A DNA stretch of 64,000 nucleotides from Clavibacter michiganensis subsp. tessellarius (GTDB lineage Bacteria > Actinomycetota > Actinomycetes > Actinomycetales > Microbacteriaceae), in NCBI RefSeq assembly GCF_021922985.1, contig NZ_CP040788.1, forward strand, positions 2,108,001-2,172,000. Reading direction: 5' to 3'. Each line of letters starts with the position of its first letter. Positions within the stretch are counted from its first letter, which is position 1. This document shows, in pieces, positions 414 through 56,629 of this stretch. The position numbers and the translations under genes were made by a program. The notes beneath the pieces were generated by a model. It made no database searches, was not told the DNA's origin, and saw nothing but the letters and a program-made list of their open reading frames with translations.

Positions 414-1430
414 ATGAAGCACGACCCCCGCACCATCCGCACCGCGACCACCCTCCTCCTGGGTCTCGCCCTCACCGCCGGGATCCTCACCGCGGCATCT
501 CCCGCCAGCGCCGCGACCAGCGGCGCCGCGAGCACCGCGCCCACGGCCGTCACCGCCGCCCCCACCGTCTCCGACGCGCGGCTCCGCTTCGGTGTCGCGA
601 CCCCCGGCGGGCCGACCGCCGGCGGCGAGCTCGACCAGGTCGCCGCGCAGGTCGGCGAGGACCCGAGCATCGTGCTCTCGTACGCCGACTTCACGCAGGC
701 GCCGCCCATCCAGGCCCTCGACGAGGTCCGCGCACGGGGCGCGGAGAGCCTCCTCACGTGGGAGCCGTGGAAGGCGGGAGCTGGCGTGGACCAGCCCGGC
801 TTCTCGAACGCGAGCATCCTCGCGGGCGACCACGATGCGTACCTCCGCGAGTGGGGCACCCAGCTGGCCGCCTGGGGCGGTCCCGTCTCCCTCCGCTACG
901 CGCACGAGATGAACGGCGACTGGTACCCGTGGGCCGAGGGCGTCAACGGCAACGCGGCGGGCTCCTACGCCGCCGCGTGGAAGCACGTGCACGACGTCGT
1001 CGTGGGCCAGGGCGCCACCAACGTCCGCTGGGTGTGGACGCCGAACGTGCCGTACACCGGATCCACCCTCCTCGCCGGCCTCTACCCGGGCGCCGGGTAC
1101 GTCGACGTCGTCGGGCTCGACGGCTACAACTGGGGCACCGGCGTCGCCGGCCGCGCCTGGGTCTCGCCGTCCGACCTCTTCGGCTTCGGCCTCGAGCGGC
1201 TGCGCGCCGTCGCGGCGGGCAAGCCGATCATCATCGCGGAGACCGCGTCGTCCGAGGTCGGCGGATCGAAGGCCGCCTGGGACACCGACCTCGTCGCGTT
1301 CCTGCAGGCCCAGCCCGACGTCGTCGCCTTCGTCTGGTTCGACATGGACAAGGAGGCGGACTGGCGCATCGGCAGCTCCGCGTCCTCCACCACGGCCATC
1401 CGCGACGCGCTCGCCGCCCGCCGCGTCTGA
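414..1430 (+). CDS. Secreted glycoside hydrolase family 26 (beta-mannanase-like)
   Basis: About 338 residues. An N-terminal signal peptide has a basic start, a hydrophobic stretch and a likely cleavage after ASPASA near residue 30. The rest is one GH26-type catalytic domain: the HEMNGDWYPW block carries the probable acid/base Glu165, and IIIAETASSE carries the probable nucleophile Glu276. GH26 enzymes cleave beta-1,4-mannan or mixed-linkage glucan, so an exported plant-polysaccharide or exopolysaccharide hydrolase fits. The reading frame also opens at a TTG at 405, but the ATG at 414 starts a more typical signal peptide. A TAGCTT element at 373-378 could be its -10 box. The next gene is a paralogue. 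Confidence 0.82.
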   Translation: MKHDPRTIRTATTLLLGLALTAGILTAASPASAATSGAASTAPTAVTAAPTVSDARLRFGVATPGGPTAGGELDQVAAQVGEDPSIVLSYADFTQAPPIQALDEVRARGAESLLTWEPWKAGAGVDQPGFSNASILAGDHDAYLREWGTQLAAWGGPVSLRYAHEMNGDWYPWAEGVNGNAAGSYAAAWKHVHDVVVGQGATNVRWVWTPNVPYTGSTLLAGLYPGAGYVDVVGLDGYNWGTGVAGRAWVSPSDLFGFGLERLRAVAAGKPIIIAETASSEVGGSKAAWDTDLVAFLQAQPDVVAFVWFDMDKEADWRIGSSASSTTAIRDALAARRV

Positions 1431-1542
1431 TGGCCGCTCAGCCCCCGTCATCGGATCCCGTCGCCAGACGGACATCCGATGGACGGCGGGCACCGAAGAA
1501 CATACGATCGCATACATCCATCGGGGGAAGGACCCTATCGCC

Positions 1543-2943
1543 ATGCCCACTCGCCGCCGCCTCAAATGCGCTGTCGTCACCGCCGTCGCACCCGCGGTCG
1601 TGACGGCGACCGTCCTCGTCGCTCCCGCGGCCGCCACCCGCGCCGCCGCGGCGGAGACCGTGCCCACCGCGCCCGCCGCGATCGTCCTCTCCGTCGCCTC
1701 CGGTCCCGTCGGGACGCCCGTGACCGTCACCGGCACGGGCTTCGCCGCCAAGAAGGCCGCGGTCGTCGCCGTCGGGTCGACCACGAAGCGCATCACGACC
1801 ACCGCCGCCGGCCGCTTCACGACCGCCGTCGCGATCCCCCGCACCTCGCTCTCGACCATCAGGATCACCGCGACCGCGGGCACGCGCTCGGCCGCGTCCA
1901 CGTTCACGGTCACGCCGGCGAAGTCGAGCGGATCCGCCCGCCTCGGCGCCCCGGCGCCCGCGCCCACGACGACCCCCGCCCCGGCCGCGACGCCCGTTCC
2001 CGCAGCGACCCCCGCGCCCGCTCCCGCGACGACGCCGGCCACGCCCGCCGCCTCCGCGCCCGCCGCCTCCTCCGCCCCCGCCATCAGCTCCGCGCGCCTG
2101 CGCCTCGGCCTCTCGACCCCCGGCGGGCCCACCGCGAACGGCGAGCTCGATGCGGCATCCGCGGAGCTCGGCGAGAGCCCGTCCATCGTGATGAGCCACG
2201 TCGACTTCACGAACCCCGCCCCGATCGCGGGCCTGACGAGCGTCGCCGCGCGCGGCGCCGACAGCCTCCTCACCTGGGAGCCGTGGAAGGGCGGCGCGGG
2301 CACGAGCCAGCCCGCGTACTCCAACGCGCGCATCATCGCCGGCGACCAGGACGCCTACATCCGCTCCTGGGGCGCCGACCTCGCGAAGTACGGCAAGACC
2401 GTCTACCTCCGCTACGGCCACGAGATGAACGGCAACTGGTACCCCTGGTCGGACGGCGTCAACGGCAACGCGCCCGGCTCCTACGTCCAGGCGTGGAAGC
2501 ACGTGCACGACCTCGTCGTCGCGCAGGGCGCCACCAACGTGAAGTGGGTGTGGAGCCCGAACGTGCCCTACCCGGGATCCACCGACCTCGCCTCGCTCTA
2601 CCCGGGCAGCGACCAGGTCGACGTCGTCGCGCTCGACGGCTACAACTGGGGATCCGCGCCCGGCCAGCGCTGGACGGATCCGGCCGCGCTGTTCGGCCCC
2701 GGCATCGACCGCCTCCGCGCGGTCGCGCCCGGCAAGCCGCTCGTCATCGGCGAGGTGGCGTCGAGCGAGGTCGGCGGATCCAAGGCCGCGTGGAACCGCG
2801 ACCTCGTCGCCTACCTGCAGGCGCAGCCCGACGTGCTCGGCTTCGTGTGGTTCGACTTCAAGAAGGAGGAGGACTGGCGGATCGACAGCTCGGCCGCCTC
2901 CGCCACCGCCCTCCGCGACGCGCTCGCCCTCCGGCGCGGCTGA
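1543..2943 (+). CDS. Secreted GH26 glycosidase with N-terminal Ig/IPT-like domain
   Basis: 466 residues, a longer paralogue of the preceding gene. Order: signal peptide (about 1-40), a beta-rich Ig/IPT-like module (about 45-125, rich in TVTVTGTGF-type strands), a Pro/Ala/Thr-rich linker (about 130-180), then the GH26 domain. The catalytic pair is Glu294 in GHEMNGNWYPW and Glu404 in VIGEVASSEVGG. The module plus linker should display the enzyme away from the cell or bind polymer; its ligand cannot be told from sequence. Start ATG follows GGGGGAAGGA. The domain layout suggests a duplication in which one copy gained or lost the accessory module. Confidence 0.82.
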   Translation: MPTRRRLKCAVVTAVAPAVVTATVLVAPAAATRAAAAETVPTAPAAIVLSVASGPVGTPVTVTGTGFAAKKAAVVAVGSTTKRITTTAAGRFTTAVAIPRTSLSTIRITATAGTRSAASTFTVTPAKSSGSARLGAPAPAPTTTPAPAATPVPAATPAPAPATTPATPAASAPAASSAPAISSARLRLGLSTPGGPTANGELDAASAELGESPSIVMSHVDFTNPAPIAGLTSVAARGADSLLTWEPWKGGAGTSQPAYSNARIIAGDQDAYIRSWGADLAKYGKTVYLRYGHEMNGNWYPWSDGVNGNAPGSYVQAWKHVHDLVVAQGATNVKWVWSPNVPYPGSTDLASLYPGSDQVDVVALDGYNWGSAPGQRWTDPAALFGPGIDRLRAVAPGKPLVIGEVASSEVGGSKAAWNRDLVAYLQAQPDVLGFVWFDFKKEEDWRIDSSAASATALRDALALRRG

Positions 2944-3070
2944 TCGCGCGCATCCGGGTCCCGCACAGTCACCGTCCAGCTCGCGCAGGGGCGTCACGAG
3001 GAGAGCGCGGCCTACGATCTGACCTGCGCGCCTCCGACCCGACGGTGGCGCGCGTGATGAGGAGGCGGTG

Positions 3071-4381
3071 GTGACCCGAGCGCACCGGCGGCGCGAGACC
3101 GCGCTCGCCCTCGCCGCCGTGCTCGTCGGCCTCGTGATCCTGCCGGCCCCGCCCGGATCCGGCGTCGAGGGGGGCTTCGCGCAGCTCGACCGCTACGCCG
3201 CCCTCACCGCGGTGCAGGCCCAGCGGATGATCCAGGCGCACCCGGCCCTCGAGCTGCAGGTGATGGACGCGTCGCCCGAGCGCGTCGTCTCCTGGTGGGC
3301 CGCCAAGGACCGGAAGCACCAGCGCGCGCTCATCCGCAGCTCGCCCCAGCTCGTCGGCAACCTCGACGGGATCGACTACGCCTCGCGCGACGCCGCCAAC
3401 CGGCGCCAGCTCCGCGCCGAGCTGCGCACGGAGCGGGAGGCGGTCGCCGCACACCCCGACGACGCCGACGCGCGGGACAGCCTCACCGCCCTCACGGCGA
3501 TCCGCGACGCGCTCAAGCCGGCGGCCCGCGCGGGCGGGCACGCCGAGCCGCGGCGCTGGCTCGTGTCGCTGAGCCATCGGGATCCGCCGCTCGCCGCCAT
3601 CGCGGTCGGCGACCTCGACACCGCCCGCCAGGTCACCTTCACGGTGCCGGGCATGGGCACCTACACCGACGACATGCAGCTCTGGACCGAGACCGCGCAG
3701 AACGTGTTCGACGCGCAGGCGTCGGTCGGCGCCCCGGCCGCGCACGCCGTGGTCGCGTGGATCGGCTACCGCACCCCGCCGCCCGGCGTCGACGCGACGC
3801 TCGGCGACTACGCGGAGCGCGGCGCCCCGCTGCTCGCGAGCGAGATCGCCGGGCTGCATGCGGCACGGCACGGCGGCGACCTGGCGAGCGTGAACGTCAT
3901 CGCGCACTCGTACGGATCCACCATGGCCGCTGACGCCCTCGCCGCCCGCGACCTCGGCGTCGACTCCTTCGTCATGCTCGGCTCGGCCGGCGTCGAGGAC
4001 GGCATCGCGGACGCGCGCCAGCTGCACGCCCGCCACGTCTACGCGGGCGAGGCGGCGGACGACGACGAGGCCGAGTGGGGCCGGCTCTCCCGGCAGGATC
4101 CGCGTGCTCCCGGCTTCGGCGCCACCGTCATCTCCGTCGACGGGGATCCCGCCCGCGGACTCCTGCCCGTCACCACGCACGCGCCCGTCCTGCACTCGCG
4201 GTGGAACGACGACCCGGACTCCCGCGCCTGGTCGACCATCCGCGATCCGGCCGAGCGCGCCGCCGAGTTCGCCGCGCACGAGAAGACGTACGGCTACCTC
4301 GACGCGGGGACGGAGTCGCTGCGGAACGCGGCGATCGCGACGACGCCGCACGCGAGAGAGCGGCTCGACGCGGCGGGCTGA
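3071..4381 (+). CDS. DUF1023-type alpha/beta hydrolase
   Basis: About 436 residues. A single hydrophobic segment near residues 10-30 suggests a membrane anchor or uncleaved signal. The C-terminal half is an alpha/beta hydrolase domain of the DUF1023 family: VIAHSYGSTMA holds the nucleophile elbow (Ser in AHSYGS), with the usual strand LGVDSFVMLGSAGV after it. The substrate is unknown; family members are predicted lipases or esterases. A GTG at 3068 is also possible, but AGGAGG at 3060-3065 is better spaced for the GTG at 3071. Confidence 0.75.
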   Translation: MTRAHRRRETALALAAVLVGLVILPAPPGSGVEGGFAQLDRYAALTAVQAQRMIQAHPALELQVMDASPERVVSWWAAKDRKHQRALIRSSPQLVGNLDGIDYASRDAANRRQLRAELRTEREAVAAHPDDADARDSLTALTAIRDALKPAARAGGHAEPRRWLVSLSHRDPPLAAIAVGDLDTARQVTFTVPGMGTYTDDMQLWTETAQNVFDAQASVGAPAAHAVVAWIGYRTPPPGVDATLGDYAERGAPLLASEIAGLHAARHGGDLASVNVIAHSYGSTMAADALAARDLGVDSFVMLGSAGVEDGIADARQLHARHVYAGEAADDDEAEWGRLSRQDPRAPGFGATVISVDGDPARGLLPVTTHAPVLHSRWNDDPDSRAWSTIRDPAERAAEFAAHEKTYGYLDAGTESLRNAAIATTPHARERLDAAG

Positions 4382-4522
4382 GCGCAACCGCCGGCACGCC
4401 TGCCGCATGTCGAACCGCCGATGCCTCATCTTGATCATCGCCGAAGCCGCCTCGATCGCGTTCGCGGTCACCGGGTCACGGGTGCGCTCGGGCTGCTTCT
4501 CGACGCCTGAGAGGTCGCCGCC
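4382..4522. other. Degenerate intergenic DNA left of the insertion
   Basis: No supported gene. A short plus-strand frame from ATG 4407 begins MSNRRCLILIIAEAASIAFAV, which looks like the first membrane helix of some protein, but it then runs into the pseudogene fragment described next. It is either a decayed gene start or chance. Confidence 0.4.
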
Positions 4523-4669
4523 TCAGACCGACACGCGCTCCCCGAGCGACGCCTGCCGCGACTGCTCCACGTCGACGTGCATGTCGTCCGCCGCGCGTCG
4601 ACCACGTGCGACGGGTCGCCTAACAGCGCTCCGCCGCCCGGCCGACTTGTGTCACGCCGACGCCGCAAA
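4523..4669 (-). pseudogene. 3'-terminal fragment of a GT9 glycosyltransferase gene
   Basis: Read on the minus strand, this segment matches the last ~45 codons of the intact glycosyltransferase gene ending at 6551. CGVGVTQVGRAAERC aligns with CGVDVTQVGWTAERC, DPSHVVDAR with DPSHVADVR, and DDMHVDVEQSRQASL with DDVHADVEQLRRASL. The fragment has an in-frame TAG after AERC and two single-base deletions, so it is not translatable. It keeps its own natural end, LGERVSV-stop, whereas the intact gene ends in a different tail. It lies directly left of the AT-richer insert, so it marks the old gene end displaced by the insertion. Confidence 0.8.
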
Positions 4670-4780
4670 CAATTAGGCGTGACCTGATCCCCAGCGCGAA
4701 GGCGCCCGCCCTGAAGCGGTGGCAAGCTTTCGCTTCACGGCCAGACAACGCGAAAGTCAAAGAGTGCGCCATAATAAGTT

Positions 4781-6490
4781 ATGGACTTCCTCGACGGCTT
4801 CGCGTTCTCCGGTTACAGAAGTTTTGCTTCAGAGGGACTCGCAGTACTGCATCCTCTTCGCAAAGTTAATTTGATTGCCGGACAGAATAATGTAGGCAAA
4901 TCTAATGTAATGAGAGTCTTGAAGTCCGCATTCGGGGTAGAACGAGGTGCCGTGGGTCCATTCGATAGACCCCATGGAGACGCAGAGCAGACCATTAGGA
5001 AACTGCAATATTTCACCTTCGAATCCATCATCGCATGGCCCGGATCTGCGCACCTTCTGCCTCATCTGAAGCAATATCTTCTAGACTTACTGACTAAGTT
5101 TGCCGCACAAACCGAACTGAGTCACGATGGTGGTCTTTGGCTGCAGATAAATGATAGCGGATCCATCGATTCGGACGCGCTCCGGGCGGTCTCGCAGAAA
5201 GTTGGCGACTCAATACAAACGCGCGAGCTTGCTCTCGCAATCTCCGGCCAAAGCAGTAGCCGTAGAGGTGAGGATGGACATTTTGTGCTTGAACGAATAT
5301 TTGCTCACATGCCACCCACCCCAACCTCACACATTATTGACGGCGTCCGCGCCATTTCGGACGACAACGAGGAGGCGCCGGACCTAAATGGTCGAAGTAT
5401 CAAAGGTAGGCTACTGCGGCTTCAAAACCCGCCGACGAGCCGACTAGAAGATAAGCATCTCTTCAACGCTATCCAAGATTTCGTTCGAGCAGTTCTGGAC
5501 GACAGTAGTATCACAATAAATATTCCCTATGATTTATCGACCATTCACATAACACAAGATGGCCACACGTTGCCGATCGAGAATCTGGGGACGGGCATTC
5601 ACGAGGTGGTTATAATTGCCGCGGCATCTACTATTCTCGGAGATTCCATCGTCTGCATAGAAGAGCCTGAAGTGCATTTGCACCCAGTACTACAGAGGAA
5701 GCTGCTCAGGTATCTAGCCGAGCACACATCGAACCAGTACTTCATCGCGACACACTCGGCTCATATTTTAGATTCAGGCATAGGGTCTATTTTTCACGTT
5801 ACTCGGACAGCAGGCGCCTCGGCCGTGACGTACGCGGGCTCCGCCAACGGACGAGCGGCGTTATGCGCGGATCTTGGATATCGCCCCTCGGACCTAGTTC
5901 AAACCAATGCGGTACTATGGGTAGAGGGTCCATCCGATCGTATTTATTTGAAACATTGGATTGACTCTTTTGCACCAGGGCGGTTCATCGAGGGCATACA
6001 CTACTCGATCATGTTCTACGGTGGCGCGCTACTCAAAATGCTATCTCCACTAGATATTGAAGAAATCGACGAGTTTATTTCACTCCGAAGCCTGAACAGA
6101 TATATGCTTGTCATGATGGACTCTGACAAGAAGCTCGAGAGCGCGGAGCTGAATGACAGCAAAAAGAGAGTAATCAATGGGCTGGAAGGCGACCCCGAGT
6201 GCAGCCTAAGCTGGGTGACGGCCGGATACACGGTAGAGAACTACATTCCACAAGTCGCACTTGATGCCGCCGTACGTATAGCTCACCCATCCACAAATGG
6301 CAGAACCTTCACTTCTCAACGTCGATATACCAATCCTCTGTCGGGGCGGCGACTCGGGGTTAGTCAGCCGAGTAAAGTGGCGATCGCGAAACAAGTTGTG
6401 GCAGCAGGATCCCCCACTTGGACCTTGGACCTCGAGTCGCAAATTCGGGCGACTATTGCCCTAATAGAGCGAGCTAATATTCAAGCGTAG
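4781..6490 (+). CDS. OLD-family ATP-dependent endonuclease (AAA ATPase + TOPRIM)
   Basis: 569 residues. The N-terminal SMC/OLD-type ATPase has Walker A GQNNVGKSN (34-42), Walker B CIEEPEVHLHP with Glu294/Glu295, and the ATHSAH switch near 325. The C-terminal TOPRIM nuclease domain shows VEGPSD (381-386) and DSD (447-449), the metal-binding acids. OLD nucleases cut DNA in an ATP-linked manner and act in phage defence. No helicase partner (GajB type) is adjacent, which fits class 1, single-gene OLD. Base and codon use are much more AT-rich than every neighbour (ATA, TTA and AAT codons are common), so it is horizontally acquired. There is no clear ribosome site; CATAAT lies 5 bases before the ATG, so a leaderless mRNA is possible. 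Confidence 0.85.
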   Translation: MDFLDGFAFSGYRSFASEGLAVLHPLRKVNLIAGQNNVGKSNVMRVLKSAFGVERGAVGPFDRPHGDAEQTIRKLQYFTFESIIAWPGSAHLLPHLKQYLLDLLTKFAAQTELSHDGGLWLQINDSGSIDSDALRAVSQKVGDSIQTRELALAISGQSSSRRGEDGHFVLERIFAHMPPTPTSHIIDGVRAISDDNEEAPDLNGRSIKGRLLRLQNPPTSRLEDKHLFNAIQDFVRAVLDDSSITINIPYDLSTIHITQDGHTLPIENLGTGIHEVVIIAAASTILGDSIVCIEEPEVHLHPVLQRKLLRYLAEHTSNQYFIATHSAHILDSGIGSIFHVTRTAGASAVTYAGSANGRAALCADLGYRPSDLVQTNAVLWVEGPSDRIYLKHWIDSFAPGRFIEGIHYSIMFYGGALLKMLSPLDIEEIDEFISLRSLNRYMLVMMDSDKKLESAELNDSKKRVINGLEGDPECSLSWVTAGYTVENYIPQVALDAAVRIAHPSTNGRTFTSQRRYTNPLSGRRLGVSQPSKVAIAKQVVAAGSPTWTLDLESQIRATIALIERANIQA

Positions 6491-6550
6491 GCGAAGTGTA
6501 GTAGTCAATATTTCCCAAAGGACTCTACTGAAAACCGGGTGTCTCGCATA

Positions 6551-7690
6551 TCAAAGTAGAATCGAGATCTGAGACAGCGACGCCCGCCGCAGCTGCTCCA
6601 CGTCCGCGTGCACGTCGTCCACGCGCACATCGGCGACGTGCGACGGGTCGTGCGCGCAGCGCTCGGCGGTCCAGCCGACCTGGGTGACGTCGACGCCGCA
6701 GACCGGGCAGCGCGTGGTCCAGCCGATGTGGATCCGGTGCCGCGTGCGCCCGAACGCCGCCGCGTTCACGACGTTGCCGAACCAGAACACCCCGACCGTG
6801 CGCGCACCGACGGCCTGCGCGAGGTGGCGCGGGCCGCTGTCGTTGCCGAGCACGACGTCGGCGTGCGTGAAGAGGCCGGCGAGCTCGCCGAGGGTCAGGG
6901 AGTCGGCGAGCGAGGTGATCCGCGCGGCCTGCTCCGCGGGCAGGCCCTCCCGGCCGAGCGCGACGATCCGGTCGGCGTCCGCGGCGTCGGTCGCGTCGCC
7001 CACGACGACCACCTGCGCGTCGTCGGCGGCGGCCCGCCGCGCGACCTCCGCGAACGACTCGACCGGCCATCGGCGGCGCGGGTCGGTGGCGCCCGGGTGG
7101 ATCACGACGAGCCCGCCCGGCGCGCCCGTCACGTGCTCGGCCGCCGCGGCGCGCTCGGCGTCGGTCACCTCGACGACCGGCTCCAGGTCGGCGACGGGCG
7201 CGCCCGCGAGCCCCGCGACCTCGAGCCCGCGCAGCACCTCGTGCTGGTAGTAGACGTACGGGATCACGCGCTCGAGCCGCTCGGCGTCGTCGGTCGCCGT
7301 GCCCACGGTGTGCCGCGCGCCGAGCCGCAGCAGGAACGGGTTGGAGTTGCGTCCGCCGCCGTGCACCTGCACGGCGAGGTCGAAGCGGCGCTCGCGCATC
7401 CGGGCCGCGAACGCCTCGACCTCCGCGGGGTCCGGATCCGTGCCCGGCACGTCCCGCACCCCGTGCGCGACCGGCAGCACCTCGATCTCCTCGGGCGCTC
7501 CCGGGCGACCGGCCAGCAGCGCGCGGTGCAGCGGCGTGCCGAGCAGCGTGATCCGCGCGCCCGGGTACGCGGCCCGCAGCGCCGCGATCGCGGGCAGCGC
7601 GAAGATCAGGTCGCCGAGCCCGCCGCCGCGCAGCACGGCGATGGAGCGGACGCGAGGGAAGGTCTCGTGGAGCGGGGCGACGACGGGCAC
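6551..7690 (-). CDS. Glycosyltransferase family 9 (heptosyltransferase-like)
   Basis: 379 residues from GTG 7690, behind AGGAGG. The N-terminal domain has RGGGLGDLIFALPAI (about 20-34), the acceptor-side motif of GT9. The C-terminal nucleotide-sugar domain has VVIHPGATDPRRRWP and VLGNDSGPRHLAQAVG. GT9 enzymes move heptose from ADP-heptose; in Gram-positives the acceptor is a cell-surface glycan or glycoprotein. An HldE-like enzyme that could supply ADP-heptose is encoded at 16.8 kb. The last residues (SQISILL) come from AT-rich inserted DNA and differ from the ending kept in the displaced fragment at 4523-4669, so the present C-terminus was probably replaced when the insertion arrived. Confidence 0.85.
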   Translation of the reverse strand: MPVVAPLHETFPRVRSIAVLRGGGLGDLIFALPAIAALRAAYPGARITLLGTPLHRALLAGRPGAPEEIEVLPVAHGVRDVPGTDPDPAEVEAFAARMRERRFDLAVQVHGGGRNSNPFLLRLGARHTVGTATDDAERLERVIPYVYYQHEVLRGLEVAGLAGAPVADLEPVVEVTDAERAAAAEHVTGAPGGLVVIHPGATDPRRRWPVESFAEVARRAAADDAQVVVVGDATDAADADRIVALGREGLPAEQAARITSLADSLTLGELAGLFTHADVVLGNDSGPRHLAQAVGARTVGVFWFGNVVNAAAFGRTRHRIHIGWTTRCPVCGVDVTQVGWTAERCAHDPSHVADVRVDDVHADVEQLRRASLSQISILL

Positions 7691-7766
7691 GGGCGGGCCT
7701 CCTGGTCGGGCGGGCGGGTCCCCCTCCCCGTTCCCCGCGGCGGGCGGGTCGAAACGGGGGCGCCCG

Positions 7767-8840
7767 TCAGGTCGCTTCGGCGGGCCGGGCGTCCGCCCGC
7801 GGCGCCGCCGCGCTCTCGCGCACCACGAGCCGCGTCGGCACGATGCGCTCGCCCGAGGGCTCGCGGCCGTCGAGCATCTCCAGCAGGACCTGCATCGAGC
7901 GGCGGCCGATCTCGGTGAAGTCCTGGTGCACGGTGGTGAGCGGCGGCCAGAACGAGCTCGACTCCTCGGTGTCGTCGAAGCCGACCACGCTGATGTCGCC
8001 CGGCACGTCGCGCCCGAGCTCGTGCAGCGCGTGCATGATCCCGAGCGCCATCTGGTCGTTCGCGGCCACGATCCCGGTGATGTCGGCGCGCTGCCCGAGC
8101 TCCTTGCCGATGCGGTAGCCGGACGCGGTGGTCCAGTCGCCCTGCGCGGGATCCTCCGGGGAGAGCCCGGCGTCGACCATCGTCGCCCGCCACTCCGCCG
8201 CGCGCCGGGCCGCCGAGTACGAGGTGGACGGGCCGGCGACGTGCACGATCGCGGTGTGCCCGAGGTCCAGCAGGTGCTGGGTCACGAGGCGCGTGCCCTG
8301 CTCCTGGTCGGTGTCGACGACCACGAACGGGTCGCCCGCGTCGGAGTCGATGATCACGACGGGCAGACCCACGGGGATGATGACGTCGGCCCGGTCGAGC
8401 ATGTGCGCCTCGATGATGATGACGACCCCGTCGACCGCCTCCTCCTGCAGCCGGCTGAACGCACCGGCCACCTCGCCCTCGGTGGGGTGCGGCACGGGCA
8501 TCAGCGTGATCGTGTAGCCGGCGTCGGACGCGGCCGTGACGATCGCGTCGAGCGTGCGCATGTTCCCGAGGGTCGAGAGCGTGAACATGATGATGCCGAT
8601 GCTGCGGAAGCGGCCCGTCTTCAGCGCCCGGGCCGCGCTGTTCGGCCGGTAGCCGAGCTCGGCCATCGCGTCGACCACGCGCTGGCGGGTCGAGGCCTCC
8701 ACGTTCTGCGCGCCGTTGGACACGCGGGAGACGGTCTGCGCGGAGACCCCGGCGTGCGCCGCGACGTCCGCCATCGACACGGTGCGGCCGCCGGGCGTGC
8801 GCCGGCCACCCGACTTGACGGCCGACGGTGGAGATGTCAT
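7767..8840 (-). CDS. LacI-family transcriptional regulator
   Basis: About 357 residues from ATG 8840. An N-terminal LacI helix-turn-helix (MADVAAHAGVSAQTVSRVSNG, read in two parts: MADVAAHAGVSAQTVSRV and SNG) is followed by the hinge RPNSAARALKTGR and a periplasmic-binding-like sugar domain. It is divergent from a sugar importer and beta-galactosidase operon with a perfect LacI-type palindrome between them, so it most likely represses both itself and that operon until a galactoside-type inducer binds. The frame stays open upstream to 8903, but that would put the operator inside the coding region; the ATG at 8840 is preferred. Confidence 0.9.
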   Translation of the reverse strand: MTSPPSAVKSGGRRTPGGRTVSMADVAAHAGVSAQTVSRVSNGAQNVEASTRQRVVDAMAELGYRPNSAARALKTGRFRSIGIIMFTLSTLGNMRTLDAIVTAASDAGYTITLMPVPHPTEGEVAGAFSRLQEEAVDGVVIIIEAHMLDRADVIIPVGLPVVIIDSDAGDPFVVVDTDQEQGTRLVTQHLLDLGHTAIVHVAGPSTSYSAARRAAEWRATMVDAGLSPEDPAQGDWTTASGYRIGKELGQRADITGIVAANDQMALGIMHALHELGRDVPGDISVVGFDDTEESSSFWPPLTTVHQDFTEIGRRSMQVLLEMLDGREPSGERIVPTRLVVRESAAAPRADARPAEAT

Positions 8841-8858
8841 GGTTGCGAGCATCACAGA

Positions 8859-8872
8859 TGTTTGCGCAAACA
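8859..8872. promoter_or_regulatory. LacI-type operator palindrome
   Basis: TGTTTGCGCAAACA is a perfect 14-base palindrome with the central CG typical of LacI/GalR operators. It sits 18 bases before the regulator start and 78 bases before the first transporter gene, a position suited to repressing both directions. Confidence 0.85.
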
Positions 8873-8950
8873 CCCAATCCTCCCGAGGTGGGTGACAGCC
8901 CACCCCCCATGGGCTAGGAGCGCCGCGATCCCCCGACGAAGTGGAAGCAC

Positions 8951-9892
8951 ATGACGACGATGTCGACCTCGGCCGCCCGGCCGAAGGCGCCCGACGCGGC
9001 CCGCCCCAGCGGTCCCCCGATGCGACGCGACAAGCGACGCTGGACCGGTCTGGGCTTCGTGGCCCCGTTCCTCGTGGTCTTCCTCGTCGTGCTCATCGCG
9101 CCCGTCGGCTACTCGATCTACCTCAGCCTGTTCCAGGAGCGGATGATCGGCGGCAACTCGTTCGTCGGCATCGACAACTACGCGCGCGCCTTCCAGGACG
9201 CGAAGTTCTGGGAGGCCCTCGGCCGCGTCGCGCTGTTCCTCGTGGTGCAGGTGCCGATCATGCTGTTCGTCGCCCTCTTCGCGGCGCTCGCGCTCGACTC
9301 GGCCCGCCTCCACCTCACGGCGTTCTTCCGCATCTCGATCTTCCTGCCCTACGCCGTCCCCGCGGTCGTCGCCGCGCTCATGTGGGGCTTCATCTACGGC
9401 AACCGCTTCGGCCTCGTCGGCAACCTCGAGCAGGCCACCGGCTGGGACCTGCCCGACCTGCTCTCGCAGAGCTGGATCCTCGCGTCGATCGGCAACATCG
9501 TCACGTGGGAGTTCGTCGGCTACAACATGCTGCTGTTCTACGCGGCCCTCCGCGTCATCTCGCCCGACCTCTACGAGGCCGCCGAGCTCGACGGCGCCGG
9601 CCCCTTCCGCATCGTCACCGGCATCAAGCTGCCCGCCATCCGCGGCGCGCTCGTCATCGGCGTGATCTTCTCCATCATCGGCAGCTTCCAGCTCTTCAAC
9701 GAGCCGAACATCCTGCAGACGCTGGCGCCGAACGGGATCAGCTCGTTCTTCACGCCGAACATGTACGCCTACAACCTGTCCTTCGCGGGACAGGAGTTCA
9801 ACTACTCCGCCGCCATCGCGATCATCATGGGCGTCCTGACGATGGTGGTCGCCTACGTGGTGCAGCTCGTCGGCACCCGGAAGGACAGCTGA
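8951..9892 (+). CDS. Sugar ABC transporter permease (MalF/UgpA type)
   Basis: 313 residues with six predicted membrane helices. The EAA loop, EAAELDGAGPFRIVTGIKLP, lies near residues 210-230 and is where the ATPase docks. It is the first gene of a four-gene operon (two permeases, binding protein, GH35 enzyme) and pairs with the next permease. No ATPase gene is in the operon, so a shared MsiK-type ATPase encoded elsewhere probably powers it, as is common in actinobacteria. Confidence 0.9.
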   Translation: MTTMSTSAARPKAPDAARPSGPPMRRDKRRWTGLGFVAPFLVVFLVVLIAPVGYSIYLSLFQERMIGGNSFVGIDNYARAFQDAKFWEALGRVALFLVVQVPIMLFVALFAALALDSARLHLTAFFRISIFLPYAVPAVVAALMWGFIYGNRFGLVGNLEQATGWDLPDLLSQSWILASIGNIVTWEFVGYNMLLFYAALRVISPDLYEAAELDGAGPFRIVTGIKLPAIRGALVIGVIFSIIGSFQLFNEPNILQTLAPNGISSFFTPNMYAYNLSFAGQEFNYSAAIAIIMGVLTMVVAYVVQLVGTRKDS

Positions 9893-9894
9893 CC

Positions 9895-10845
9895 GTGTCG
9901 ACCCTCACCGGAACCCCCCTCGCCGCGCCCGACGCCGGCACGCCCGTCCGCGACGCCCCCGCGGAGCGCTCCCCCAAGCGCCGCAAGAGCGCCGGCGCCC
10001 CGCGCGAGCGCCGCAGCATCGTGCTCACCATCGTGATGTCGCTGCTGCTGATCTACTCCGTGCTCCCGCTCTTCTGGCTCCTGGTCAACTCGACCAAGAC
10101 GCAGGACGCGCTGTTCAGCTCGTTCGGCCTCTGGTTCTCGGGCGACTTCGCGCTGTGGGACAACATCCAGGGCGTGCTCACGTACGGCAACGGCGAGTTC
10201 GTCCGCTGGCTCGGCAACACGTTGATCTACGTGGTGGTCGGCGCGGGCGGCGCCACGCTGCTCGCCACCCTCGCGGGCTACGGCCTGGCGAAGTTCGACT
10301 TCCCGGGCAAGAAGATCGTGTTCGCGGTGGTGCTCGGCGCCGTCGCGATCCCGGGCACCGCCCTCGCGGTGCCGACCTTCCTGCTCTTCAGCCAGATGGG
10401 CCTCACGAACACCCCGTGGGCGATCATCCTCCCGTCGCTCATCAGCCCCTTCGGCCTGTACCTCATCTGGACCTACGCGGTCGACTCGGTGCCCACCGAG
10501 ATCCTCGAGGCGGCCCGCATGGACGGCTCGAGCGAGCTCCGCACCTTCTTCACGATCAGCCTGCGGCTCCTCAGCCCCGGCCTCATCACGGTGCTGCTGT
10601 TCTCGATCGTCGCGACCTGGAACAACTACTTCCTGCCCCTGATCATGCTGAGCGACTCCCGCTGGTACCCCCTCACGGTGGGCCTCAACCAGTGGAACGC
10701 GCAGTCCACCACCGTGGGCGGCCAGCCGATCTACAACCTCGTCATCACGGGCTCTTTCCTCGCGATCATCCCCATCGTGATCGCGTTCCTCTTCCTCCAG
10801 CGCTACTGGCAGTCCGGCCTCTCGGCCGGCGGCGTCAAGGCGTAG
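9895..10845 (+). CDS. Sugar ABC transporter permease (MalG/UgpE type)
   Basis: 316 residues from GTG 9895, only 2 bases after the preceding stop, so translation is probably coupled. A Lys/Arg-rich cytosolic N-terminus (about 1-40) precedes six membrane helices. The EAA loop, EILEAARMDGSSELRTFF, sits in the middle of the second half. It forms the heterodimeric channel with the upstream permease and should import an oligosaccharide, probably a galactoside given the GH35 gene downstream. Confidence 0.9.
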   Translation: MSTLTGTPLAAPDAGTPVRDAPAERSPKRRKSAGAPRERRSIVLTIVMSLLLIYSVLPLFWLLVNSTKTQDALFSSFGLWFSGDFALWDNIQGVLTYGNGEFVRWLGNTLIYVVVGAGGATLLATLAGYGLAKFDFPGKKIVFAVVLGAVAIPGTALAVPTFLLFSQMGLTNTPWAIILPSLISPFGLYLIWTYAVDSVPTEILEAARMDGSSELRTFFTISLRLLSPGLITVLLFSIVATWNNYFLPLIMLSDSRWYPLTVGLNQWNAQSTTVGGQPIYNLVITGSFLAIIPIVIAFLFLQRYWQSGLSAGGVKA

Positions 10846-10906
10846 CGCCCTCCGACAGCTCCACCGCACCTCCCCTCACCACCACGAAGAAGTGAAAGGC
10901 ACCACC

Positions 10907-12259
10907 ATGTCCATCTCGTTCCCCCGCAGGGCGAAGCGCGCCATCGCGCTCGGCCTCGGCATCGTCCTCGCGGGCTCGCTCGCGGCGTGCTCCTCCGGAT
11001 CCGGCGGCGCCAGCGCCGACTCCGCCTCGGCCGACGACCTCGCCAAGGCCCTCGACACGCAGTCCTCCATCACCGTCTGGGGCTGGGCCCCGGCCATCAA
11101 GCCGATCGCCGAGGCGTTCGAGAAGGAGCACCCGAAGGTCACGGTCGACGTGCAGAACGTCGGCACCGGCGCCGACCAGTACACGAAGCTCCAGAACGCC
11201 ATCAAGGCGGGCAAGGGCGCTCCCGACGTGGCGCAGATCGAGTACTTCGCGATCCCGCAGTTCGCGCTCGGCAAGTCCCTCGCCGACCTCTCGGGCTACG
11301 GCTACACGGACCTCAAGGACCAGTTCACGGCGTCGACCTGGAACGCGGTCACCGAGGGCGACGCCCTCTACGCGCTACCGCAGGACTCGGGCCCCATGGC
11401 GATGTTCTACCGCCAGGACGTCTTCGACAAGTACCAGATCGCCGTCCCCACCACGTGGGACGAGTACGTGGCCGCCGCGGAGAAGATGCACGCCGCCGAC
11501 CCGAACCAGTACATCACCAGCGACTCCGGCGACGCCGGCTTCACCACGAGCATGATCTGGCAGGCCGGCGGCAAGCCCTACAAGGTCGACGGCGACAAGG
11601 TCACCATCGACATGCAGGACGCGGGCGCCAAGAAGTACACGGCCATGTGGAACCAGCTCGTCGCCAACGGCTCGCTCGCCCAGACCCCCGGCTGGACCGA
11701 CGAGTGGTTCCGCGGACTCGGCGACGGATCCATCGCCACGCTGATCACCGGCGCCTGGATGCCCGGCAACCTCGAGGCGCAGGCCACCGCGGGCTCCGGC
11801 CAGTGGCGCGTCGCCCCGATGCCGCAGTACACCGCGGGCGACACCGCGACCGCGGAGAGCGGCGGATCCTCCATCGCCGTCATGCAGCAGTCGGCCAACA
11901 AGCTCGTCGCGGCGGAGTTCGCGAAGTTCACCACCGCGAACGAGGAGGGTCGCAAGATCTCCTTCGACGCCGGCGGATTCCCCTCCACCACGGCGGACCT
12001 GAACAGCCCCGAGTTCCTGTCCGAGGCGCCCGAGTACTTCGGCGGCCAGAAGATCAACGAGGTGCTCAGCGCGGCCTCGAAGGAGGTCGTCCCGGACTGG
12101 CAGTACCTGCCCTTCCAGGTCTACGCGAACAGCATCTTCAGCGACTCGGCCTCGTCGGCGTACTCCGCCGGCACCTCGCTCGACCCCGTCCTCGAGGCGT
12201 GGGGCAAGGCGGCTGCCGAGTACGGCCAGCAGCAGGGCTTCTCCGTCGACGTGAAGTAG
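10907..12259 (+). CDS. Sugar ABC transporter substrate-binding lipoprotein
   Basis: About 450 residues. The signal peptide ends in the lipobox LAAC, so the mature protein should be lipid-anchored outside the membrane. The body is a family 1 extracellular solute-binding fold (ITVWGWAPAIKPIAEAFEKEH at the start of lobe 1 is characteristic; the motif is given here only as a pointer). GAAAGG at 10894-10899 (read GAAAGG in the sequence) favours the ATG at 10907 over a GTG at 10892. It captures the sugar for the two permeases upstream. Confidence 0.9.
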   Translation: MSISFPRRAKRAIALGLGIVLAGSLAACSSGSGGASADSASADDLAKALDTQSSITVWGWAPAIKPIAEAFEKEHPKVTVDVQNVGTGADQYTKLQNAIKAGKGAPDVAQIEYFAIPQFALGKSLADLSGYGYTDLKDQFTASTWNAVTEGDALYALPQDSGPMAMFYRQDVFDKYQIAVPTTWDEYVAAAEKMHAADPNQYITSDSGDAGFTTSMIWQAGGKPYKVDGDKVTIDMQDAGAKKYTAMWNQLVANGSLAQTPGWTDEWFRGLGDGSIATLITGAWMPGNLEAQATAGSGQWRVAPMPQYTAGDTATAESGGSSIAVMQQSANKLVAAEFAKFTTANEEGRKISFDAGGFPSTTADLNSPEFLSEAPEYFGGQKINEVLSAASKEVVPDWQYLPFQVYANSIFSDSASSAYSAGTSLDPVLEAWGKAAAEYGQQQGFSVDVK

Positions 12260-56539: not shown

Positions 56540-56629
56540 TGGCGGTGGCGGTGGGATTTGAACCCACGGTGGAGTCTCCCCCACACACGCTTTCGAGGCG
56601 TGCTCCTTAGGCCGCTCGGACACGCCACC
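56540..56629 (-). tRNA. tRNA-Ser(CGA)
   Basis: The acceptor arms GGTGGCG and CGCCACC pair, followed by discriminator G and an encoded CCA (56540-56542). The anticodon loop CTCGAAA gives anticodon CGA (56593-56595), which reads UCG. The T-arm GGGTTCAAATCCC is standard, and a long variable arm confirms the serine class. Confidence 0.95.

What the first reader, a model, noticed from the sequence alone, without database searches (positions are those of the whole stretch)
4523..6600. AT-rich nuclease gene inserted beside a glycosyltransferase gene, leaving a displaced copy of its 3' end
A frameshifted 147-base copy of the GT9 3' end stands left of the insert, and the intact gene on the right ends in a different tail encoded by AT-rich DNA. 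This is the footprint of an element that entered the 3' end of the gene and supplied a replacement end, as integrating elements do at tRNA genes. No integrase is present. The two copies differ at roughly a fifth to a quarter of positions by eye, so the replacement end probably came from another lineage, or the event is old.
Basis: partly seen in the sequence, partly recalled or inferred. Interest (0 to 1): 0.75.

Follow-up and report, generated by a model that had tools for sequence, protein, structure and literature searches.

The report
Imported nuclease displaced a gene end
In one Clavibacter species, a probable phage-defence nuclease gene sits beside a sugar-transferase gene whose 3' part came from another Clavibacter lineage, and the old gene end is still there as a decaying leftover, which suggests delivery by ordinary DNA recombination rather than by a mobile element with its own integrase.

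Summary
Window 4545-4670 is a second copy of the GT9 3' end at 6576-6703 (79.7% identity over 128 columns, two 1-base gaps), with the nuclease between. The 17 other genomes of the genus have one GT9 end, with a native tail; 12 of 17 have an empty site (3-45 bp between stops). So the insertion is derived. The leftover is the native copy: it groups with the nearest relative, G016 (bootstrap 96), and has decayed about evenly over codon positions. The intact gene is of another lineage up to a seam at about 7349-7392 (0 of 2000 permutations), some 650 bp beyond the duplicated part; an integrase would put it at the duplication's edge. Best reading: incoming DNA with the nuclease and a GT9 3' part recombined by homology inside GT9 and joined imprecisely on the other side, orphaning the old end. 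The slot holds other cargo in 5 of 17 genomes, so it is a small, apparently integrase-free hotspot. The nuclease resembles solitary Class 1 OLD nucleases. New member of a known kind; modest interest.

The parts
3068..4381 (+). alpha/beta hydrolase gene (ABH), left, convergent flank of the slot
   Evidence: Pfam Abhydrolase_8; directly beside the GT9 end in 12 of 17 relatives, beyond 0.6-1.4 kb of cargo in 3 and beyond about 9 kb in 2
4382..4522 (.). 141 bp between ABH stop and leftover GT9 stop, origin unknown
   Evidence: absent from empty sites (3-45 bp there); no clear match in own genome, genus, plasmids or other slots
4523..4670 (-). leftover (orphaned) 3' end of the native GT9 gene, stop codon kept, two 1-base gaps, decayed
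   Evidence: 80% to the right copy, groups with G016, differences about even over codon positions
4671..4780 (.). leader of the inserted cassette
   Evidence: no match in the genus or in other slots
4781..6490 (+). OLD-like ATPase-Toprim nuclease, 569 aa, solitary
   Evidence: not at this site in any of the 17 other genomes; one full-length homologue (45%) elsewhere in G005
6491..6575 (.). end of cassette; 6551-6575 now encodes the new GT9 tail and stop
6551..7690 (-). intact GT9 gene
   Evidence: Pfam Glyco_transf_9, E 2e-26
6576..6703 (-). right, functional copy of the duplicated GT9 end, 92-98% to the 17 relatives
   Evidence: GTend rows
7197..7420 (.). recombination seam in GT9 (best estimate 7349-7392): other-lineage allele on the 3' side, native (G016/G017-like) allele on the 5' side

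Best explanation
A cargo gene for an OLD-like nuclease was delivered into the tail-to-tail gap between ABH and GT9 by homologous recombination, not by an integrase. The incoming DNA came from another Clavibacter lineage that already had the nuclease next to a GT9 gene with a rewritten tail. It crossed over with the resident GT9 at about 7349-7392, so the resident gene received the donor's 3' 800 bp and tail. On the far side the join was imprecise (homology-facilitated illegitimate recombination, or a patchy double crossover), so the resident gene's own 3' end was not replaced but left behind as an orphan, which then decayed. The nuclease is most likely a solitary, phage-directed OLD nuclease. 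Shown: duplication, empty sites, two alleles of different lineage, seam, decay, other cargo in the slot. Inferred: direction and single-event nature of the transfer, the illegitimate far join, the donor, the nuclease's function.
For: G016 is the nearest of the 17 relatives: in a 6-kb stretch more than 30 kb away it is 91-94%, the others 76-91%, and it is nearest, ties included, in 17 of 37 bins of 500 bp around the locus in which it has data, the next genome in 5. Third-position divergence of the window genome to G016 / to G003: GH26a 0.091 / 0.143, LacI 0.095 / 0.157, GT9 5' part 0.095 / 0.158, but GT9 3' part 0.178 / 0.094: the reversal shows that the window's own GT9 3' part is the foreign one. 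Change point between 7349 and 7392, 4 of 54 G016-like sites on the 3' side, 59 of 101 beyond it, 0 of 2000 permutations as good. The leftover shares 10 of 20 G016 minority states (simulation mean 1.3, maximum 8 in 20,000) and pairs with G016 at bootstrap 96. Its differences from G016 are 8/9/8 over codon positions 1/2/3, while the genus varies 6/12/29, as expected of an unused copy. Slot: 12 of 17 empty, 2 with a RhuM-family gene, 1 with an ORF of no Pfam family and a RhuM-like remnant, 2 with about 9 kb that include a sugar ABC operon.
Against: No donor was found: none of the 17 other genomes has the nuclease at this site; the one full-length homologue in the genus (45%, G005) lies elsewhere and is too distant to be the source. 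The far join cannot be checked for microhomology without the donor. ABH is also of the other lineage in the window genome (third-position 0.103 to G003 against 0.255 to G016), with a second switch near 2944, so the leftover lies between two foreign-looking flanks; but G016's ABH is 0.24-0.30 from every genome compared, so this may be G016's own import. Mosaicism is not confined to this place: G016 is 3 or more points behind the best genome in 8 of 37 bins, five of them (3001-4500, 6501-7500) beside the insert and three elsewhere (14001, 18001, 18501). The leftover is more decayed (17%) than third positions of neighbours differ from G016 (9.5%), so its age fits only loosely. The leftover-G016 grouping rests on about 150 sites; in the same count the right copy shares 5 of the 20 G016 states, its unrelated tail columns included.
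Confidence: 0.62

Rival explanations
1. One reading: an integrating element entered the GT9 3' end site-specifically and supplied a replacement end; the integrase was lost or acted in trans.
For: Geometry: displaced native end, intact gene with a new end, empty sites in relatives.
Against: Imported allele extends about 650 bp past the duplicated part; no integrase among the ORFs of the insert; the window's one tRNA gene is at 56540; no convincing terminal inverted repeats (one 13-nt pair, 4532-4544 with 6704-6716, lies in GT9-derived sequence and is one of 16 pairs listed); other cargo in the slot leaves the GT9 end single and intact.
Confidence: 0.08
2. The GT9 end was duplicated locally when the cassette was inserted by end joining; later the right copy and 650 bp beyond were overwritten by another lineage's allele.
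For: Explains the G016-like leftover and the foreign GT9 3' part with two ordinary events.
Against: Needs an extra event, and an overwriting that stops just at the cassette and keeps the cassette-encoded tail.
Confidence: 0.15
3. The whole tract from about 2944 to about 7400 (ABH, leftover, nuclease, GT9 3' part) came in one piece by double crossover from a donor in which the leftover had already been carried in with the cassette from a G016-like strain.
For: Both flanks of the insert look like the other lineage, with switches near 2944 and near 7349-7392.
Against: G016's ABH is odd against all genomes compared, so the left switch may be G016's own; and a G016-like fragment inside a foreign tract in G016's nearest relative would be a coincidence.
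Confidence: 0.15

Closest known systems
[quoted passage not shown] passages read)
   Same: Variable cargo between the same two genes, no integrase seen, flanking gene shows a recombination seam.
   Different: That work is a statistical survey; here one event shows the old gene end left behind. I did not test the formal hotspot threshold.
Homology-facilitated illegitimate recombination (PMC3240628, abstract and outline; PMC5361080, passages)
   Same: One join by homology, the other not. PMC5361080 proposes it for Vibrio T6SS loci, where the resident's old module is shifted next to the new one, and says that it was also hypothesised for Rhs loci.
   Different: Here the anchor is a glycosyltransferase gene and the displaced piece is a useless gene end, not an immunity gene. 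Mechanism inferred, not observed.
Integrative elements that enter the 3' end of tRNA or protein genes (recalled)
   Same: Displaced 3' end on one side, intact gene with substituted end on the other.
   Different: No integrase; seam far beyond the duplicated segment.
Class 1 OLD nucleases (PMC10568477, passages read)
   Same: ABC ATPase plus Toprim acidic motifs, no helicase or retron partner beside it.
   Different: Distant in sequence; nearest solved structures by sequence are GajA, Thermus OLD, AriA and retron Eco8 OLD; no activity tested.

Membership tests
Site-specific integrative element at a gene 3' end | integrase gene in the element | tested here: not met
   4671-6575 holds one plausible gene among its listed ORFs, the nuclease; Pfam of that ORF shows no recombinase
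Site-specific integrative element at a gene 3' end | replacement end begins at the att core, so the allele seam lies at the duplication edge | tested here: not met
   seam at 7349-7392, interval 7197-7420, duplication edge at 6703
Site-specific integrative element at a gene 3' end | empty sites with the native end | tested here: met
   12 of 17 genomes
Homology-facilitated illegitimate recombination | homologous join on one side | tested here: met
   allele switch inside GT9
Homology-facilitated illegitimate recombination | non-homologous or micro-homologous join on the other side | tested here: inconclusive
   GT9 homology ends abruptly at 4670 and foreign DNA follows; no donor, so microhomology cannot be read
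Integrase-free recombination hotspot | several unrelated cargoes between the same genes | tested here: met
   4 kinds of cargo in 6 of 18 genomes, the window's included; statistical threshold not applied; not every ORF of the 9-kb cargoes was identified
Class 1 OLD nuclease | N-terminal ABC ATPase motifs and C-terminal Toprim acidic residues | tested here: met
   invariant G34, N36, N37, G39-N42, E294-E297, E382, D386, D447, D449 in 15 aligned proteins (motif names recalled); Pfam AAA_15 and AAA_21 in 15 of 15, OLD-like_TOPRIM in only 2 of 15 and not in the window's protein
Class 1 OLD nuclease | solitary gene, no helicase or reverse transcriptase beside it | tested here: met
   in the window: neighbours are ABH and GT9; in relatives only ORF lists of 8 loci looked through by eye
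Class 1 OLD nuclease | nuclease and ATPase activity, phage interference | not testable with these tools
   -
Gabija (GajA) | adjacent GajB helicase | tested here: not met
   neighbours are ABH and GT9

The most novel reading that the evidence does not exclude
The ABH-GT9 gap is a standing integrase-free port in Clavibacter: cargo travels between species together with a stretch of the flanking glycosyltransferase gene, which acts as the homology anchor and rewrites the resident gene's end, sometimes leaving the old end behind as a datable scar.
Probability: 0.25. Interest if true: 0.5.

Novelty: new member of a known kind. Interest (0 to 1): 0.33.

Why it matters
Many bacterial hotspots lack integrases (PMC5635113, passages), and how their genes arrive is argued there from statistics. 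A locus that keeps both the imported and the native gene end, of distinguishable lineage, lets the route be read from sequence and gives a rough age from the decay of the leftover. It also warns that a displaced gene end beside foreign DNA is not by itself proof of an integrating element.

Tried and rejected
Integrase-type insertion: rejected on the position of the seam and the absence of an integrase in the insert. Leftover from another genus: 398 Microbacteriaceae genomes searched with 4520-4675; 23 matched at E <= 1e-4; the 10 of the genus (own included) match over 126 bases or more, best G016 at 84%, the 13 others over 104 bases or fewer; rejected for that sample. Replacement end foreign and leftover merely a decayed main-type copy: rejected by the G016-specific states. 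4382-4522 as an insertion-sequence remnant: a 38-aa reading found only weak matches (best other E 0.003; 84 of 398 genomes at E <= 0.5, own included); not resolved. Terminal repeats of the cassette: none convincing. In my notes I named the G016 slot ORF GrpB-like; Pfam gave no family, so that name is withdrawn. A paper search with six terms on displaced gene fragments in defence hotspots returned none; that proves little.

Full report
The organism. The window is C1:2108001-2172000 of a 3.37-Mb genome of 4 contigs. It belongs to Clavibacter: the first 6,000 and 12,000 bases of two of its smaller contigs match Clavibacter plasmids in 41 of 51 and 25 of 48 matching records, and a congener, G001, has a 78,006-base contig with a GT9 paralogue where C. 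californiensis plasmid NZ_CP040793.1, also 78,006 bases, has one. The species was not identified.

The observation. The 3' end of the GT9 gene (6551-7690, minus strand) has a second, frameshifted copy at 4523-4670, next to the convergent ABH gene, with a nuclease gene of about 50-52% GC between them. Alignment score 72 against at most 24 in 500 shuffles. The left copy keeps a native-type stop; the right gene loses its native last residues and ends in SQISILL, encoded by cassette DNA.

Empty sites. GT9 orthologues of 90-96% identity are found in 17 of 17 other genomes of the genus. Each has one long match to the leftover, in GT9 itself, and a native-type tail. In 12 of 17, ABH and GT9 stops lie 3-45 bp apart. 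In G013 and G005 a RhuM-family gene sits between them (Pfam E 1.4e-99 for the G005 one; the two slots 93% alike over 1338 bp), in G016 an ORF without a Pfam family plus a 66-bp RhuM-like remnant (82%), and in G010 and G007 ABH lies about 9 kb away, with a sugar ABC-transporter operon in the 7.5 kb that I looked at next to GT9 (operon named from its translations by eye).

Which copy is foreign. G016 is the nearest of the 17: 91-94% against 76-91% in a 6-kb test stretch more than 30 kb away, and best, ties included, in 17 of 37 bins around the locus, next G002 with 5. Yet in GT9 from 6576 to 7200 the window genome is nearest to G003 (96.5%, against 90.3% to G016), while the 5' end of the same gene (7450-7690) is 96.7% to G016 and G017 and 91.7% to G003. 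Third-position divergences swap accordingly. A likelihood change point over 155 informative sites in 6576-9892 lies between 7349 and 7392 (interval 7197-7420), and 0 of 2000 permutations reach it. A Fisher test with a boundary chosen by eye at 7405, gave p = 2e-8.

The leftover is the native allele. It shares 10 of the 20 states in which G016 departs from the genus majority, 5 of 11 with G017 and 5 of 12 with G004, 0-4 with the others; simulation under random change gives a mean of 1.3 and a maximum of 8 in 20,000 for G016. On a tree of 19 sequences the split of leftover plus G016 from the rest has ultrafast bootstrap 96 (the right copy's unrelated tail columns were left in). Its differences are spread about evenly over codon positions (6/12/11 from the majority, 8/9/8 from G016), unlike the genus (6/12/29 variable columns): it has decayed without use. 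With 17% difference from G016 (25 of 147) against 9.5% at third positions of LacI, the event is not recent.

Reading. The resident gene's 3' part was replaced by an allele of another lineage that came with the nuclease, and the resident's old end stayed behind. One join is homologous (the seam in GT9). The other, at 4670/4671, joins the middle of the old gene end to foreign DNA. This is the kind of outcome described as homology-facilitated illegitimate recombination (PMC3240628, abstract and outline) and proposed for displaced modules in Vibrio T6SS loci (PMC5361080, passages). A patchy double crossover is an alternative form of the same idea: discontinuous donor segments are frequent in transformants of Bacillus subtilis (PMC13344027, passages), and ABH on the left also looks foreign. 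Two freshwater Actinobacteria, Rhodoluna and Aurantimicrobium, can be naturally transformed (PMC11577799, passages); I do not know whether Clavibacter can. Integrase-free hotspots with recombining flanks are described by PMC5635113 (passages).

The cargo. The 569-aa protein has AAA_15 and AAA_21 matches, partial PADLOC matches (144 families at E <= 0.1, 25 shown, best GajA over residues 290-391), and homologues of 33-55% identity in other Actinobacteria (14 of 21 loci aligned), also on plasmids, among them of Rhodococcus, Burkholderia and Vibrio (64 records, 6 with at least 80% cover), but in only 1 of 50,697 phage records. In a family-wide sample 38 of 299 genomes had some match, most of them short; in the genus, besides the window's genome, G005 has a full-length 45% homologue at another place and four genomes have short partial matches. 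All 15 aligned proteins keep the ATPase and Toprim acidic residues. A predicted model (mean pLDDT 79, pTM 0.62) aligns along much of its length with retron Eco8 OLD and GajA (E about 1e-11, but TM only about 0.3). No helicase or retron partner is adjacent in the window. Class 1 OLD is the best name; defence is an inference. The review I read in passages says that P2 Old was the only Class 1 protein with established phage defence at its date (PMC10568477); a 2026 paper reports anti-phage phenotypes for ybjD (PMC13261556, abstract start in a listing).

Limits. One genome per species; 148-base leftover; no donor; ABH history ambiguous; mosaicism also elsewhere nearby; 141 bp at 4382-4522 unexplained.

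Noticed in passing
window 4382-4522: 141 bp between the ABH stop and the leftover GT9 stop that empty sites lack; no clear relatives by DNA or by a 38-aa reading.
   Followed up: partly
L074 6274-7615 (reverse-complemented) and L078 6118-7467: RhuM-family gene alone in the same ABH-GT9 gap in two other species, and a 66-bp remnant of it in G016.
   Followed up: partly
L079, L088 with L120, L128: In G010 and G007 about 9 kb, with a sugar ABC-transporter operon, a ROK-like and oxidoreductase-like genes (named by eye), separates ABH from GT9.
   Followed up: no
window 2944 and 3068-4381: Second allele switch: ABH of the window genome is close to the main group (third-position 0.103 to G003), while G016's ABH is 0.24-0.30 from every genome compared.
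   Followed up: partly
G005:C1:1664854-1666617: A second, full-length member of the nuclease family (45%, 617-aa open frame) in another Clavibacter, away from this slot.
   Followed up: no
L054 about 8095-10959 and L063 about 1176-4022: Long ORFs near two nuclease homologues (Microbacterium azadirachtae, Herbiconiux) that look by eye like phage tape-measure genes, so this nuclease may ride in prophages.
   Followed up: no
G000:C2, L134 2829-10933: 8.1 kb of a small contig is 99.4% identical to 73-kb C. michiganensis plasmids and carries ilvD, glnA, eno and CrcB-type genes: probably a recent exchange.
   Followed up: no
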